A stretch of DNA of 64,000 nucleotides from Afipia sp. (GTDB lineage Bacteria; Pseudomonadota; Alphaproteobacteria; Rhizobiales; Xanthobacteraceae). The DNA lies in contig JACQDM010000007.1 in the NCBI GenBank assembly GCA_016201045.1, positions 310,001 through 374,000 on the forward strand, written 5' to 3'. The translations under genes and the position numbers were made by a program. The notes beneath the pieces are model-generated. The model was not told the DNA's origin. It made no database searches and worked only from the letters and a program-made list of their open reading frames with translations. Numbering within the stretch: the first letter of the stretch is position 1; each line of letters opens with the position of its first letter. This document shows, piece by piece, positions 21,558 through 57,112 of this stretch.

Positions 21558-22526
21558 TTAGAGCGAGCGCTTGAAATAATGGGCGATCTCGCCGACCACA
21601 CCGCGGCGGAAGGTCAGGACGCAGATCACGAAGATGGCGCCCTGTATCACCGTAACCCACTGCCCGAATCCGGCGAGATACTGCTGCATCGCCACGATCA
21701 CGAATGCGCCCACAACCGGCCCGAACACGGTGCCAAGGCCCCCGACCAGCGTCATCAGCACGACTTCGCCGGACATCGACCAGTGCACGTCGGTCAGCGA
21801 CGCATTCTGCGCGACGAACACTTTCATGGAGCCGGCGAGGCCCGCCAGCGTACCGGACAGAATGAACGCCATCAGCTTGTATTGGTCGGTCTTGTAGCCG
21901 AGCGAAATGGCGCGTTGCTCGTTTTCGCGGATCGATTTTAGCACCTCGCCGAATGGCGAATTGATCGTGCGGTAGATTAGCAGGAAGCCCAGGATAAAGA
22001 CCGCGAGCACTACATAATAGAGCGTTGTTGCGTTCGACAAATCGAGCACCCCCAACATCATGCCTTGCGGAATGCCTTGAATACCGTCTTCACCGTGCGT
22101 GAACGGAGTCTGCAGATATATGAAATACAAGAGCTGCGACAGCGCCAACGTGATCATCGAAAAGTAGATGCCTTGACGGCGGATCGCGACGATGCCTGCA
22201 ACCACACCCAACGCTGCAGCTGCAAGCACTCCGAACAGAATCGCAAGTTCGGGCGAAAAGCCCCAGACTTTTGCGGCGTGCGCCGACGCATAACCGGCGG
22301 TCCCCAAGAACATCGAATGGCCGAATGACAGCAAGCCGCCATAACCGATCAAAAGGTTGAACGCGCAAGCGAATAGCGCGAAGCACAATGCCTGCATCAC
22401 AAAGAATGGATACAGGCCGGTGTGCGGGACGATTACGAGCACCGCCGCCATCAGCACGAAGGCGACCATCTCGTCTGTGGTCGAGCGGCCGGATTCCGGA
22501 ATTGCGTTTTCTGTGATGGAAGTCAT
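21558..22526 (-). CDS. livM: Branched-chain amino acid ABC transporter permease (LivM type)
   Basis: FNLLIGYGGLLSFGHSMFLG, GPVVGAFV; cluster context. Confidence 0.92.
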   Translation of the reverse strand: MTSITENAIPESGRSTTDEMVAFVLMAAVLVIVPHTGLYPFFVMQALCFALFACAFNLLIGYGGLLSFGHSMFLGTAGYASAHAAKVWGFSPELAILFGVLAAAALGVVAGIVAIRRQGIYFSMITLALSQLLYFIYLQTPFTHGEDGIQGIPQGMMLGVLDLSNATTLYYVVLAVFILGFLLIYRTINSPFGEVLKSIRENEQRAISLGYKTDQYKLMAFILSGTLAGLAGSMKVFVAQNASLTDVHWSMSGEVVLMTLVGGLGTVFGPVVGAFVIVAMQQYLAGFGQWVTVIQGAIFVICVLTFRRGVVGEIAHYFKRSL

Positions 22527-22527
22527 G

Positions 22528-22693
22528 CTGGTGTCCTGAATCCGAAGTTCGCCTCGTTTCGCAGCGTGTCCCTGAACGAACTTCGGATTCGAAAGGACAC
22601 CAGATCAATAACAATTCTAGTGCGGCTTCGGTTCGCAAGTCCGCAAATGGATTTGCCGAGCAGTCGTTGCGGGCTTGCGAACCGCCGCACTAG
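22528..22693. repeat. Composite two-hairpin intergenic repeat, copy A (22528-22603; 13-nt AT-rich spacer; 22617-22693)
   Basis: ctggtgtcct gaatccgaagttcg...cgaacttcggattc gaa aggacaccag, then ctagtgcggcttcggttcgcaagtccgc...gcgggcttgcgaaccgccgcactag. Same architecture as 55449-55611. Confidence 0.92.
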
Positions 22694-23691
22694 GCCGCCT
22701 TTCCGGTCAGTCCGGTCGGTTTCACCAGCAGCACCAGCACCATCAAGACAAACACGACTGTGTTGGACGCTTCAGGATAAAAATATTTGGTCAAGCCTTC
22801 GATCACACCCAGCGTAAAGCCTGTGATGATCGACCCCATGATCGATCCCATTCCGCCGATGACGACTACCGCGAACACCACGATAATGAGATCGGCACCC
22901 ATTAGCGGTCTGACCTGATTGATCGGAGCGGACAACACGCCGGCCAGCGCGGCCAATCCAACACCCAATCCGTAAGTCAGCGTAATCATGCGCGGCACAT
23001 TGATGCCGAATGCTCGGACCAGCGCGGGATTTTCAGTCGCCGCGCGAAGATTCGCACCAAGCCGTGTCTTCTCAATCAGGAACCACGTCGCAAGGCAGAT
23101 GACGAGCGAGAAGATAACGACCCATCCGCGATAGATCGGCAGATACATGAAACCGAGATTCATGCCGCCCTGTAAAAGGCTGGGAATGGCATAAGGCATG
23201 CCGGATGAGCCGAAAGAATTCTGGAACAAGCCCTGAATAACCAGCGCGAGGCCAAACGTGAGCAGCAGGCCGTACAAGTGATCTAGGCCGGTGAGTTTGT
23301 TCAACATCGTGCGTTCAAGAAACATGCCGACGGCACCGACGATGATCGGCGCAAGAAAAAGCGCAAACCAATAGTTCAAACCGATATCGATGTGAAACGT
23401 TTGAATCGGAATGATCGCTGCCGGAGCACTCGATGCACTGAACATCGAAATGATCGAGCTAAAAACATACGACACGGTCGATATCACGTTCGCTATGAGC
23501 GAACCGGCAGTCGGTAAGTCTATTCCGTTCAGCAGAAAGAACGCGGCAAACGCGCCCATCATATAAAGCGCGCCATGCGCAAAATTGATGATGTTGAGCA
23601 TGCCGAAGATCACGGCGAGCCCGAGACTGAGCAGCGCGTAGAACGAGCCGTTGATCAATCCAACCAGAAGCTGGGCATACAGGGCTTGCAT
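22690..23691 (-). CDS. livH: Branched-chain amino acid ABC transporter permease (LivH type)
   Basis: LLVGLINGSFYALLSLGLAVIFGMLNIINFAHGALYM. Confidence 0.93.
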   Translation of the reverse strand: MQALYAQLLVGLINGSFYALLSLGLAVIFGMLNIINFAHGALYMMGAFAAFFLLNGIDLPTAGSLIANVISTVSYVFSSIISMFSASSAPAAIIPIQTFHIDIGLNYWFALFLAPIIVGAVGMFLERTMLNKLTGLDHLYGLLLTFGLALVIQGLFQNSFGSSGMPYAIPSLLQGGMNLGFMYLPIYRGWVVIFSLVICLATWFLIEKTRLGANLRAATENPALVRAFGINVPRMITLTYGLGVGLAALAGVLSAPINQVRPLMGADLIIVVFAVVVIGGMGSIMGSIITGFTLGVIEGLTKYFYPEASNTVVFVLMVLVLLVKPTGLTGKAA

Positions 23692-53227: not shown

Positions 53228-54301
53228 TCAGCGATCGAATGCCAGTTCGTTTGCACCGATATTCGCAAAGTATGGCGCAAGCATTTCGGGTGTAACATCC
53301 TCAATATGCGGCGGCGACCATTTTGGATTGCGATCCTTGTCGATCACAGCCGCACGCACACCTTCGCGAAAATCCTCGCTGACGAACACTTCAAGCGCCG
53401 CGCGATATTCACGCTTTAGACATTCCTCCAGCGACGAGGATTGCCGTGCCAGCCGGAGCAATTTCAGCGTCACTGCAAGTCCGCGCGGAGACTTCTCGCC
53501 GAGCGTCTTGAGCGTTGCCTGCGCCCTTTCGGCGGGGTCTGCTTTCAACGCGGCCAAGATGTCCTGCATCCGGTCAAATGCGAACCATCTGTCGATTTGC
53601 GGCTGCATCGCCGCGACGGGCCCCGCTTTTTCTCCCGCCGCGAAACGTGCGATGACTTTGTCGATATCGGAATTGTTCGCGCCGCGTTGAACGCCCGACA
53701 GCGCGCGGCGCAAATCCGGCAACTTCGCCTGCGGCACCACCGTATCGGCGAACCCGGCGTGAACGGCATCCGGCCCGTTCATGACGCTTCCTGTCAAACC
53801 AAAATAGGTGCCGATCTCGCCCGGCGCACGCGAAAGCAGCCACGTTCCGCCGACGTCGGGAAAGAAGCCGAGTCCGGCTTCCGGCATCGCCAGTTTGGTT
53901 TTGTCGGTGACGACACGATGACGCGCGTGCGCCGAAAGCCCGACGCCGCCGCCCATGACGATGCCGTCCATAAAGGCGACATATGGTTTCGGAAATTTCG
54001 CGATCCGCGCATTGAGGATGTATTCCTCGCGCCAGAGAATTTTGCCGAGATCGCCCTTGGCGTGCGAGCTTTCCCACAGCGCGCGAATGTCGCCTCCGGC
54101 GCACAATCCCCGCTCGCCCGCGCCTTCCAGAATAACGATGCAGACAGCCGGATCTTTCTCGAATGCATCGAGCGCCTTGTCCGCGTCCCGGAACATCTCC
54201 AGCGTCACGGCATTGATCGCCTTCGGCCGATTGAGGCGGATGATCCCCGCGCTTCCCTCACGCAGCGCGACGAGGTCACCTTGGATGAATGGTGCGTTCA
54301 T
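53228..54301 (-). CDS. Enoyl-CoA hydratase/isomerase family, 3-hydroxyisobutyryl-CoA hydrolase-like
   Basis: MNAPFIQGDLVALREGSAGIIRLNRPKAINAVTLEMF; AFMDGIVMGGGVGLSAHARHRVVT; 4-bp overlap with the acyl-CoA dehydrogenase gene. Confidence 0.9.
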   Translation of the reverse strand: MNAPFIQGDLVALREGSAGIIRLNRPKAINAVTLEMFRDADKALDAFEKDPAVCIVILEGAGERGLCAGGDIRALWESSHAKGDLGKILWREEYILNARIAKFPKPYVAFMDGIVMGGGVGLSAHARHRVVTDKTKLAMPEAGLGFFPDVGGTWLLSRAPGEIGTYFGLTGSVMNGPDAVHAGFADTVVPQAKLPDLRRALSGVQRGANNSDIDKVIARFAAGEKAGPVAAMQPQIDRWFAFDRMQDILAALKADPAERAQATLKTLGEKSPRGLAVTLKLLRLARQSSSLEECLKREYRAALEVFVSEDFREGVRAAVIDKDRNPKWSPPHIEDVTPEMLAPYFANIGANELAFDR

Positions 54302-55443
54302 CGTGCATCCTCGATCAATTTGCGCGACACGATCAGACGCATGATCTCGTTGGTGCCTTCGAGAATCTGATGTACGCGCAGATCGCGCACGATCTTCTCG
54401 ATGCCGTATTCGGCGAGATAGCCGTAACCGCCGTGAAGTTGCAGCGCCTGATTGGCGACGTTGAATCCTACATCGGTCCCGAAACGTTTCGCCATCGCGC
54501 ACAACGTCGTCGCGTTCGCATCTTTGCGGTCGAGCGCGGCAGCGGCGCGCCAGAGAAACGTGCGAGCGGCTTCGAGTTCGGTCGCCATGTCGGCGAGACG
54601 AAATTGAAGTGCCTGAAATTCGTCGAGGCGTTTGCCGAATGCTTTTCGCTCGCGCATATAGGCCAGCGACTTGTCGAGCGCGGACTGTGCGCCGCCGAGC
54701 GAACAAGCCGCGATGTTGAGCCGTCCGCCGTCGAGACCGGCCATCGCGATCTTGAAGCCGATACCCTCCTCGCCAAGACGATTGGCGACCGGCACGCGCG
54801 CGTTCTCGAAAATCACCGCACCCGTCGGCTGCGCGTTCCAGCCCATCTTGCGCTCCATCGCGCCGAACGAAAGACCTTTGGTATCGCCTTCAACCACGAG
54901 CGTCGAAATCCCGCCCGGCCCTTTATCGCCGGTGCGCACCATCACGACATAAAGCCCGCTGCCACCCGCGCCGGAGATGAACTGCTTCTGGCCATTGAGA
55001 ACGTAGTGGTCGCCGTCGCGCACCGCGCGCGTGGACAAAGCCGCCGCATCCGAACCCGCGCCCGGCTCGGTGAGGCAATAGCTCGCCAGCGTTTCCATCG
55101 TGCAGATTTTCGGCAGCCATTTCTTGCGCTGCGCGTCCGACCCGTAATTGTCGATCATCCACGCCGACATGTTGTGGATGGAAATGAAGGCTGATGTCGT
55201 CGGACATCCGGTCGCCAGCGCCTCGAAGATCAGCGCGGCATCGAACCGCGTCAGCGCCGAGCCGCCGACATCGTCCTTGATATAGACGCCACCCATGCCG
55301 AGTGCCGCCGCAGCGCGCATTGCTTCAACGGGGAAGAATTTCTCCTCGTCCCATTTCAGCGCGAATGGCGCGATTTTCTCCGCCGCGAATTCACGCGCCA
55401 TGTCGCGAACCGCGATCTGGTCTTCGTTAAGCGCGAACTGCAT
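54298..55443 (-). CDS. Acyl-CoA dehydrogenase (isobutyryl-CoA dehydrogenase-like)
   Basis: YCLTEPGAGSDAAAL, LHGGYGYLAEYGIEKIVRDLRVHQILEGTNEIMRLIVSR. Confidence 0.93.
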   Translation of the reverse strand: MQFALNEDQIAVRDMAREFAAEKIAPFALKWDEEKFFPVEAMRAAAALGMGGVYIKDDVGGSALTRFDAALIFEALATGCPTTSAFISIHNMSAWMIDNYGSDAQRKKWLPKICTMETLASYCLTEPGAGSDAAALSTRAVRDGDHYVLNGQKQFISGAGGSGLYVVMVRTGDKGPGGISTLVVEGDTKGLSFGAMERKMGWNAQPTGAVIFENARVPVANRLGEEGIGFKIAMAGLDGGRLNIAACSLGGAQSALDKSLAYMRERKAFGKRLDEFQALQFRLADMATELEAARTFLWRAAAALDRKDANATTLCAMAKRFGTDVGFNVANQALQLHGGYGYLAEYGIEKIVRDLRVHQILEGTNEIMRLIVSRKLIEDAR

Positions 55444-55448
55444 CGCCG

Positions 55449-55611
55449 CTAGTGTCCCGTATCCGACGTTCGCTTCTATCCGCAGCGCCCTCCGAGCGAA
55501 CGTCGGATACGAAAGGACACTAGCAAATTATTATTCTAGTGATCCTTTGGTTCCGACATTCGTAAAGTGCCCGCGAAAGATACGATACGAATGTCAGAAC
55601 CGGATCACTAG
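55449..55611. repeat. Composite two-hairpin intergenic repeat, copy B (55449-55523; 12-nt AT-rich spacer; 55536-55611)
   Basis: ctagtgtcccgtatccgacgttcgct...agcgaacgtcggatacgaaaggacactag, then ctagtgatcctttggttccgacattcgta...tacgaatgtcagaaccggatcactag. Confidence 0.93.
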
Positions 55612-55615
55612 GTAC

Positions 55616-57112
55616 TCAGTTCATCGTCGGGATAACGAATTCCGCGCCGTCCTTCACGCCGGAGGGCCAGCGCGATGTCACGGTCTTGGTCTTGGTGTAG
55701 AAGCGCACCGAGTCCGGGCCGTGCTGGTTGAGGTCGCCGAAGCCGGATTTTTTCCAGCCACCAAAGGTGTAATACGCAATCGGCACCGGGATCGGCACGT
55801 TGATACCGACCATGCCGACATTCACCTTCGCGGCGAAATCGCGCGCGGCGTCGCCGTCGCGGGTGAAGATCGCAACGCCGTTGCCGTAGTCATGCCCGGA
55901 CGGCAGCGCGAGCGCTTCATTGTAATCGTTGGCACGCACCACCGAGAGCACAGGGCCGAAGATTTCTTCCTTGTAGATGCGCATGTTCTTGGTGACGTTA
56001 TCGAACAGGCAGCCGCCCATGTAGAAGCCGTTCTCATAGCCCTGCATCTTGAAGCCACGTCCATCGACGGCGAGTTTTGCACCTTCCTTGATGCCGACTT
56101 CGACGTAATCCTTCACGCGATCGAGCGCGGCTTTTGTCACCAGCGGGCCGAAATCCGCAGATGGATCGGTCGAAGGACCGATCTTGAGGCTCTCCACGCG
56201 CGGAATGAGTTTTTCCATCAGGCGGTCGGCGGTCGTCTTGCCGACCGGCACCGCGACCGAAATCGCCATGCAGCGTTCGCCTGCCGAGCCGTAGCCCGCC
56301 CCGATCAGCGCATCGACGGTCTGATCCATATCGGCGTCCGGCATGACGATGGCGTGGTTCTTCGCGCCGCCGAAACATTGCGCGCGCTTGTTGGTCGCTG
56401 CCGCACGCTCATAGATATATTGCGCAATCGGCGAGGAGCCGACGAAACCGACGGCGCGAATATCCGGATCGTCGAGGATCGCGTCCACCGCTTCCTTGTC
56501 GCCGTTGACGACGTTGAGCACGCCCGGCGGCAATCCGGCTTCGATCATCAAGGCGGCCAGTGCCATCGGCACGCCTGGATCGCGCTCGGAGGGCTTGAGA
56601 ATGAACGCATTGCCGCAAGCAATCGCAGGCGCGAACTTCCACATCGGGATCATCGCGGGAAAATTGAACGGCGTAATGCCTGCAACAACACCAAGCGGCT
56701 GGCGCATCGAGTAGATGTCGATGCCCGGACCGGCGCCTTCGGTATATTCGCCCTTCATCAGGTGCGGAATGCCGCAGGCAAACTCGACGACTTCAAGCCC
56801 GCGCTGGATGTCACCCTTGGCGTCGGGAACAGTCTTGCCGTGTTCACGCGCCAGCAGATCGGCGAGCTTGTCGTAGTCGCGCTGCACAAGCTCGAGAAAT
56901 TTCATCATCACACGGGCGCGGCGCTGCGGATTGGTCGAACCCCACTCGGTCTGCGCGGCCTTGGCGTTTTCGATGGCCGCGCGCATCTCGGCCCTGGATG
57001 CCAGCGCGACCTTGGCCTGCACTTCGCCGGTCATCGGTTCGAACACGTCCGCCGTGCGGCCCGACGTACCTTTGACTTCCTTGCCGCCGATGAAATGGCC
57101 GATGGAACGCAT
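55616..57112 (-). CDS. mmsA: CoA-acylating methylmalonate-semialdehyde dehydrogenase
   Basis: IGHFIGGKEVKGTSGRTADVFEPMTGEVQAKV, GERCMAISVAVPVG. Confidence 0.95.
   Translation of the reverse strand: MRSIGHFIGGKEVKGTSGRTADVFEPMTGEVQAKVALASRAEMRAAIENAKAAQTEWGSTNPQRRARVMMKFLELVQRDYDKLADLLAREHGKTVPDAKGDIQRGLEVVEFACGIPHLMKGEYTEGAGPGIDIYSMRQPLGVVAGITPFNFPAMIPMWKFAPAIACGNAFILKPSERDPGVPMALAALMIEAGLPPGVLNVVNGDKEAVDAILDDPDIRAVGFVGSSPIAQYIYERAAATNKRAQCFGGAKNHAIVMPDADMDQTVDALIGAGYGSAGERCMAISVAVPVGKTTADRLMEKLIPRVESLKIGPSTDPSADFGPLVTKAALDRVKDYVEVGIKEGAKLAVDGRGFKMQGYENGFYMGGCLFDNVTKNMRIYKEEIFGPVLSVVRANDYNEALALPSGHDYGNGVAIFTRDGDAARDFAAKVNVGMVGINVPIPVPIAYYTFGGWKKSGFGDLNQHGPDSVRFYTKTKTVTSRWPSGVKDGAEFVIPTMN

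What the first reader, a model, noticed from the sequence alone, without database searches (positions are those of the whole stretch)
22528..22693. Composite two-hairpin intergenic repeat with covarying stems (copy A, livH-livM)
Two ~76-nt hairpins are separated by a 13-nt AT-rich spacer. Every arm fits a common pattern, CTRGTG..CC(TTT/TTC)..G(T/A)..CCG...TTCG. The extra 3 nt (unpaired bulge) sit in the 3' arm of hairpin 1 and the 5' arm of hairpin 2, so the element is two inverted copies of one bulged-hairpin unit (REP/BIME-like). Compared with copy B (55449-55611), the stems differ at several positions, but changes on one arm are matched on the other: ctggtg/caccag versus ctagtg/cactag, and gaatccgaagttcg/cgaacttcggattc versus gtatccgacgttcg/cgaacgtcggatac. 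Structure, bulge position and the cgcagcg loop core are retained while sequence drifts, which suggests selection on folded RNA/DNA or a hairpin-recognising transposase.
Basis: seen in the sequence. Interest (0 to 1): 0.8.

Follow-up and report, generated by a model that had tools for sequence, protein, structure and literature searches.

The report
Operon-hopping paired-hairpin mobile DNA element
The repeat is one of eight copies in this Afipia genome of a short, gene-free jumping DNA made of two long hairpins; it inserts at four-letter CTAG-like sites, often exactly between two genes of an operon, where it can supply the stop signal of one gene and a ribosome-binding motif for the next, and no enzyme that moves it could be found.

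Summary
In detail: window 22528-22693 holds two long bulged hairpins, with a second copy at 55449-55611. The genome (genus Afipia) has exactly eight such pairs and no solo hairpin. All 29 genus genomes carry it, up to about 80 copies in one, and it is patchy across Alphaproteobacteria. In 203 distinct stems 95% of pairs are Watson-Crick (63% if arms are re-dealt).

It is a mobile DNA element. Orthologous sites are filled in some species and empty in others; the commonest difference is an empty site with exactly 4 nt where the filled one has two 4-nt feet. Two nested insertions show direct 4-bp duplication, CTAG in one and CTGG in the other. Insertions favour operon junctions: in 65 of 154 elements the upstream stop codon is the TAG of the element's own CTAG, and the arm carrying AGGA/GGGA preferentially faces the next start codon.

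RAYT is not the mover: Y1_Tnp is absent here and in 26 of 29 genus genomes. G·U and A·C mismatches are equally common on the inferred transcribed strand, against RNA-level selection. The mobilising enzyme is unknown. New variant of the REP/MITE kind.

The parts
22528..22603 (.). Copy A hairpin X (76 nt): foot CTGG/CCAG, 10 bp, 3-nt bulge GAA in the 3' arm (22591-22593), about 15 bp, apical loop
22604..22616 (.). Copy A spacer, 13 nt (spacers in 156 composites are 75% A+T)
22617..22693 (.). Copy A hairpin Y (77 nt): foot CTAG/CTAG, 3-nt bulge in the 5' arm (about 22627-22629)
22690..22693 (-). Outer CTAG foot of Y; on the - strand its TAG (22690-22692) is the stop codon of the livH-like gene 22690-23691
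22534..22537 (-). AGGA (Shine-Dalgarno-like) in the outer arm of X, 7 nt upstream of the ATG (22524-22526) of the livM-like gene 21558-22526
22690..23691 (-). Flanking gene: LivH/UrtB-type ABC transporter permease (best NCBIfam matches below the curated cut-off)
21558..22526 (-). Flanking gene: LivM/UrtC-type ABC transporter permease (best NCBIfam matches below the curated cut-off)
55449..55523 (.). Copy B hairpin X (75 nt)
55524..55535 (.). Copy B spacer, 12 nt, AT-rich
55536..55611 (.). Copy B hairpin Y (76 nt)
54298..55443 (-). Gene downstream of copy B: acyl-CoA dehydrogenase-like; its ATG lies 5 nt from the X end of the element
55616..57112 (-). Gene upstream of copy B: methylmalonate-semialdehyde dehydrogenase (TIGR01722, above cut-off); its stop lies just outside the Y end

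Best explanation
It is a non-autonomous mobile DNA element, about 165 bp, working like a MITE or REPIN. The moving unit reads TG...CA and consists of two inverted bulged hairpins joined by a short AT-rich spacer. SHOWN: it inserts into a 4-bp site, CTAG by preference but also CCAG, CTGG, TTAG and others; in the cleanest cases the 4 bp are duplicated and become the outer feet of the two hairpins. SHOWN: persisting copies concentrate at operon junctions, where the foot's TAG often serves as the upstream stop codon and the AGGA/GGGA-bearing end preferentially faces the downstream start codon. INFERRED: an unidentified trans-acting enzyme binds the hairpins as folded DNA (cruciform or single strand) and moves the element; this keeps stems complementary in active lineages. 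INFERRED: mismatches between a new target-derived foot and the inner foot are repaired using the hairpin itself as template, so the two sides change together. INFERRED: the stop codon and ribosome-binding motif let copies survive between operon genes.
For: Eight complete pairs and no solo hairpin in the genome. In G007 all 59 strict pairs have bulges inward and a 10-13 nt spacer. Filled versus empty orthologous sites: the commonest gap is exactly 4 nt, e.g. CTAG, CCAG, CAAG. Nested insertions: L421 has CTAG and L166 CTGG on both sides of an element inserted into another copy's inner foot. 203 distinct stems: 95.0% Watson-Crick, 2.0% G-U, 1.2% A-C; 63% if arms are re-dealt. Non-CTAG outer feet match their own inner foot in 51 of 69 cases, 2.3 expected. 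G-U equals A-C on the inferred transcribed strand, 27 vs 26. Stop codon supplied by the element's TAG in 65 of 154 elements. Among elements with both a stop before and a start after, 26 read Y then X and 6 X then Y, p = 0.0005. Patchy spread over many alphaproteobacterial families.
Against: No autonomous relative or transposase was found: no cargo between hairpins and no arm pair flanking a gene in about 3.6 Mb held, and phage, plasmid and viral-contig searches gave nothing autonomous. 4-bp duplication is clear in only a few cases; most elements with one deviating foot have CTAG on the other side, so a one-sided target cannot be excluded. Several empty sites do not contain CTAG (AACG, CCCT). 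Hairpin-templated repair is inferred only; two-sided foot changes could also come from selection at insertion.
Confidence: 0.66

Rival explanations
1. It is a REPIN/BIME mobilised by a RAYT (Y1 tyrosine transposase).
For: Inverted pairs of bulged hairpins in intergenic DNA with a conserved tetranucleotide at the foot, and nested copies, as in REPINs.
Against: Y1_Tnp is absent from the own genome, from 26 of 29 genus genomes including high-copy ones, and from 13 of 19 element-bearing genomes in the class. Unit length is 76 nt and CTAG sits at both feet; known REPs are 20-40 nt with a GTAG or CGTC tag (PMC3733652). Direct 4-bp duplication does not fit Y1 transposition, which makes none (own knowledge).
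Confidence: 0.07
2. It is a MITE derived from, and moved by, a classical DDE insertion sequence with a 4-bp CTAG-type target (for example an IS5- or IS481-like element); the hairpins are incidental to transposition.
For: TG...CA ends, imperfect outer inverted repeats (mean 66% identity), a 4-bp duplication at CTAG/CTGG, patchy distribution. Several DDE families use such short CTAG-like targets (own knowledge).
Against: No IS with these ends was seen in about 3.6 Mb. Full-length stem complementarity on both arms, the inward bulge and near-complete pairing are far more than terminal repeats need.
Confidence: 0.2
3. It is a structured RNA element of mRNAs (intercistronic stabiliser, attenuator or ribosome-binding switch) kept by selection on RNA folding.
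For: Very stable folds; position between operon genes; orientation bias with an AGGA/GGGA motif before start codons; more two-sided Watson-Crick changes than expected in orthologous copies, 14 observed against about 2.
Against: G-U and A-C mismatches are equally frequent on the inferred transcribed strand. The livH-livM copy is absent or decayed in most congeners. Uncompensated mismatches accumulate in situ. No Rfam match reaches gathering score; best sub-threshold hits are eukaryotic families.
Confidence: 0.07

Closest known systems
REP / BIME / REPIN elements (RAYT-associated)
   Same: Intergenic palindromes in inverted pairs with a short spacer, a conserved tetranucleotide at the hairpin foot, non-coding, many copies, mobile.
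   Different: Hairpins 72-79 nt instead of 20-40; CTAG at both feet, no GTAG/CGTC tag; strict heterodimer, essentially never solo; no RAYT in most carriers; 4-bp target with direct duplication in nested cases.
MITEs (bacterial, including RUP/ERIC-type)
   Same: Short, gene-free, imperfect terminal inverted repeats, short target duplication, precise empty sites.
   Different: Each terminal repeat is itself half of a complete hairpin; stems covary along their whole length; no autonomous partner found.
CGTC-REPs of Alphaproteobacteria (PMC3733652) and Br-REP1/Br-REP2 of Bradyrhizobium (PMC5082802)
   Same: Palindromic repeats in the same bacterial group; CGTC-REPs also lack an associated transposase.
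   Different: Different consensus sequences and sizes; Br-REP2 is said to be part of a larger repeat in Nitrobacter, Oligotropha and Afipia, but its printed consensus does not resemble this one.
IS200/IS605-type ends
   Same: Hairpins at both ends; a tetranucleotide at the foot serves as target and is complementary to an element-borne sequence.
   Different: No Y1 transposase; direct 4-bp duplication in nested insertions; complete symmetric hairpins at both ends.

Membership tests
REP/REPIN (RAYT-linked) | RAYT (Y1_Tnp) gene in the genome | tested here: not met
   Absent in own genome and 26 of 29 genus genomes; control genomes such as E. coli ring
REP/REPIN (RAYT-linked) | 20-40 nt palindrome tagged GTAG or CGTC at one end | tested here: not met
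   Hairpins 72-79 nt, CTAG at both feet; definition from PMC3733652
REP/REPIN (RAYT-linked) | Two palindromes in inverted orientation with a short spacer | tested here: met
MITE | Short, non-coding, multi-copy, with precise empty sites | tested here: met
MITE | Terminal inverted repeats | tested here: met
   Outer arms of X and Y average 66% identity over 25 nt; imperfect
MITE | Fixed-length target-site duplication | tested here: inconclusive
   4-nt empty sites are the commonest gap; clear duplication in nested L421 and L166 and in L333; many elements have different outer feet
MITE | Related autonomous transposon with the same ends | tested here: not met
   None in about 3.6 Mb of held loci nor in viral contigs; whole genomes could not be screened for this
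Known Rfam RNA family | Score at or above gathering threshold | tested here: not met
IS200/IS605 derivative | Insertion without target duplication by a Y1 enzyme | tested here: not met
   Nested insertions show direct duplication; no Y1_Tnp

The most novel reading that the evidence does not exclude
An undescribed, RAYT-independent transposition system of Alphaproteobacteria in which an enzyme recognises paired, bulged DNA hairpins and uses pairing between the inner foot and the 4-nt target, with hairpin-templated repair then rewriting either side so that structure persists while sequence drifts; the element carries its own stop codon and ribosome-binding motif and is thereby adapted to operon junctions.
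Probability: 0.27. Interest if true: 0.82.

Novelty: new variant of a known kind. Interest (0 to 1): 0.6.

Why it matters
It appears to be a widespread but uncatalogued mobile element (no Rfam family at gathering score, no paper found in the open library searched) that enters operons without breaking either gene and can replace their stop codon and ribosome-binding site. It shows that covarying stems need not mean functional RNA: here they behave as DNA-level structure. It also poses a concrete question: which enzyme moves long paired hairpins in genomes that lack a RAYT.

Tried and rejected
RAYT/Y1_Tnp: searched in own genome, genus and class carriers; rejected. Functional RNA: no Rfam family at gathering score and no wobble asymmetry. 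Phage or plasmid spread: no phage hit, seven plasmids for one subfamily, none for copy B. Three arm patterns gave no viral-contig hit; the composite pattern gave three small contigs with terminase-like genes in which ordinary composites lie between genes. Autonomous copy with cargo: solo arms and solo hairpins were searched in the held loci; those inspected were partial composites, decayed copies or deletion derivatives. Simple TSD-only model: fits L166, L333 and L421 but not most asymmetric feet. Orthologue comparison with a loose threshold was noisy and was replaced. Sequence-string literature search returned unrelated hits.

Full report
OBSERVATION. Window 22528-22693 contains hairpin X (76 nt), a 13-nt spacer and hairpin Y (77 nt); a second copy lies at 55449-55611. 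Both fold far better than shuffles as RNA (z = -8.4 with short flanks, -13.3) and copy A as DNA (z = -11.2). In both hairpins a 3-nt bulge sits on the arm facing the spacer, so the element is two inverted copies of one unit. Oriented alike, eight hairpins of the own genome show 99.5% paired cells and 13 of 25 pairs with changes on both sides; no shuffle and no slid register comes near.

COPY NUMBER AND DISTRIBUTION. A covariance model (R1) finds exactly eight composites and no solo hairpin in the own genome (3.61 Mb, 99.86% complete). All 29 genomes of the genus carry it. The genus is Afipia: locus L057 from G010 is identical over 3,075 bases to NZ_LMDP01000003.1 of Afipia sp. Root123D2. In G007, 59 strict pairs all have the same inward-bulge arrangement with 10-13 nt spacers; apparent solos proved to be pairs with a weak partner, one shrunken and one probably truncated. 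An exact composite pattern hits 99 stretches in many alphaproteobacterial lineages (Hyphomonadaceae, Hyphomicrobiaceae, Acidiphilium, Afipia, Nitrobacter, Mesorhizobium, Phyllobacterium and others). In an even class sample 20 of 385 genomes, own included, have it under strict filters. The pattern is patchy, as for a mobile element.

MOBILITY AND TARGET. The livH-livM junction of copy A is filled in G014, G011 and G025, holds a collapsed remnant in G022 and G016, and is empty in about 20 congeners. Copy B is shared only with G025 among 24 genomes with the gene. Across 190 unique composites, the commonest precise empty-site difference is exactly 4 nt: CTAG, CCAG, CAAG (flanks 98% identical), CGAG, TTAG/TCAG, AACG, CCCT. 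The mobile unit therefore reads TG...CA and the 4-nt feet occupy the target. Nested insertions are the cleanest cases: in L421 an element sits in the inner foot CTAG of another copy with CTAG on both sides; in L166 the duplicated foot is CTGG. Deletion derivatives that join the two outer arms also exist. Outer feet other than CTAG match their own inner foot in 51 of 69 cases, against 2.3 expected, while the other hairpin's inner foot matches in only 2.

DNA OR RNA LEVEL. In 203 distinct stems from 156 composites 95.0% of pairs are Watson-Crick, 2.0% G-U and 1.2% A-C; re-dealing arms gives 63%. The TG/CA step at pairs 5-6 was used as an anchor, so its invariance there is by construction. In tandem gene contexts the inferred transcribed strand carries 27 G-U and 26 A-C, no RNA-type asymmetry (gene direction was inferred from codon-position G+C, and 83 cases were left out as unclear). 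Between 13 orthologous filled copies there are 14 two-sided Watson-Crick changes, where independence gives about 2, but also 31 one-sided changes. So stems decay in place, yet two-sided changes are in excess, many of them in the feet. Repair using the hairpin as template, plus renewal by active copies, explains this without selection on RNA; that step is inference.

OPERON FIT. At copy A the livH-like stop codon is the TAG of the element's CTAG, the livM-like ATG lies one base beyond the other end, and AGGA in the X arm stands at ribosome-binding distance. In 65 of 154 elements an upstream coding frame ends at the element's own TAG. Frame choice exceeds that of ordinary CTAG sites (72 of 107 against 199 of 444, p = 4e-5). 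Start codons within 5 nt follow the X end more often than the Y end (25 of 128 vs 8 of 180, p = 5e-5), and the order Y then X prevails when both a stop and a start are found (26 vs 6, p = 0.0005). Some orthologous copies are counted more than once. Target preference for CTAG and purging of intragenic insertions both contribute.

THE MOVER. Y1_Tnp (RAYT) is absent from the own genome and from 26 of 29 genus genomes, including high-copy ones, and from 13 of 19 carriers elsewhere in the class. No autonomous version was seen in about 3.6 Mb of held loci, in plasmids or phages, or in viral contigs. The mover is unknown; a DDE-type insertion sequence with a 4-bp CTAG target is the main conventional candidate.

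KNOWN RELATIVES. The element resembles REPINs and MITEs in behaviour but fails the RAYT and size/tag criteria of REPs (PMC3733652) and lacks an autonomous partner for a MITE. Br-REP1 and Br-REP2 (PMC5082802) have different consensus sequences. Rfam has no match at gathering score. Subscription literature and ISfinder could not be searched, so an earlier description under another name is possible.

Noticed in passing
L241:455-830 (G007:C1, near 2247 kb): A different palindromic repeat (arms around CGTCCCCGCGCAGGCGGGGACCCAT, many copies in G025, G010 and G009) surrounds a short reading frame that by eye resembles a GIY-YIG endonuclease; possibly an autonomous form of another palindrome family.
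   Followed up: no
L204, intergenic region upstream of the fadE-like gene: Another palindrome, GCATGATCCGGAAAAGTGG...AAGATCATGC, occupies in G021 the same gene junction that copy B occupies here.
   Followed up: no
L421:3841-4180 and L166:4040-4390: Nested composites: one element inserted exactly into the inner foot of another copy, with the 4-bp foot on both sides.
   Followed up: yes
L260:666-703; empty sites listed against L374 and L070; L174 and L179: Recurrent collapsed forms: a shrunken Y hairpin, or outer arms joined with the middle lost, suggesting that hairpin deletion is the usual route of decay.
   Followed up: partly
Subfamilies across G000-G028: Several subfamilies with distinct stem cores coexist in one genome (for example GAATCCGAAGTTCG, GTATCCGACGTTCG, GATTCTAACATTCG), each pairing a characteristic X with a characteristic Y.
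   Followed up: partly
L072:2935-3311: Two composites of the family lie about 45 bases apart in a Hyphomicrobiaceae MAG.
   Followed up: no
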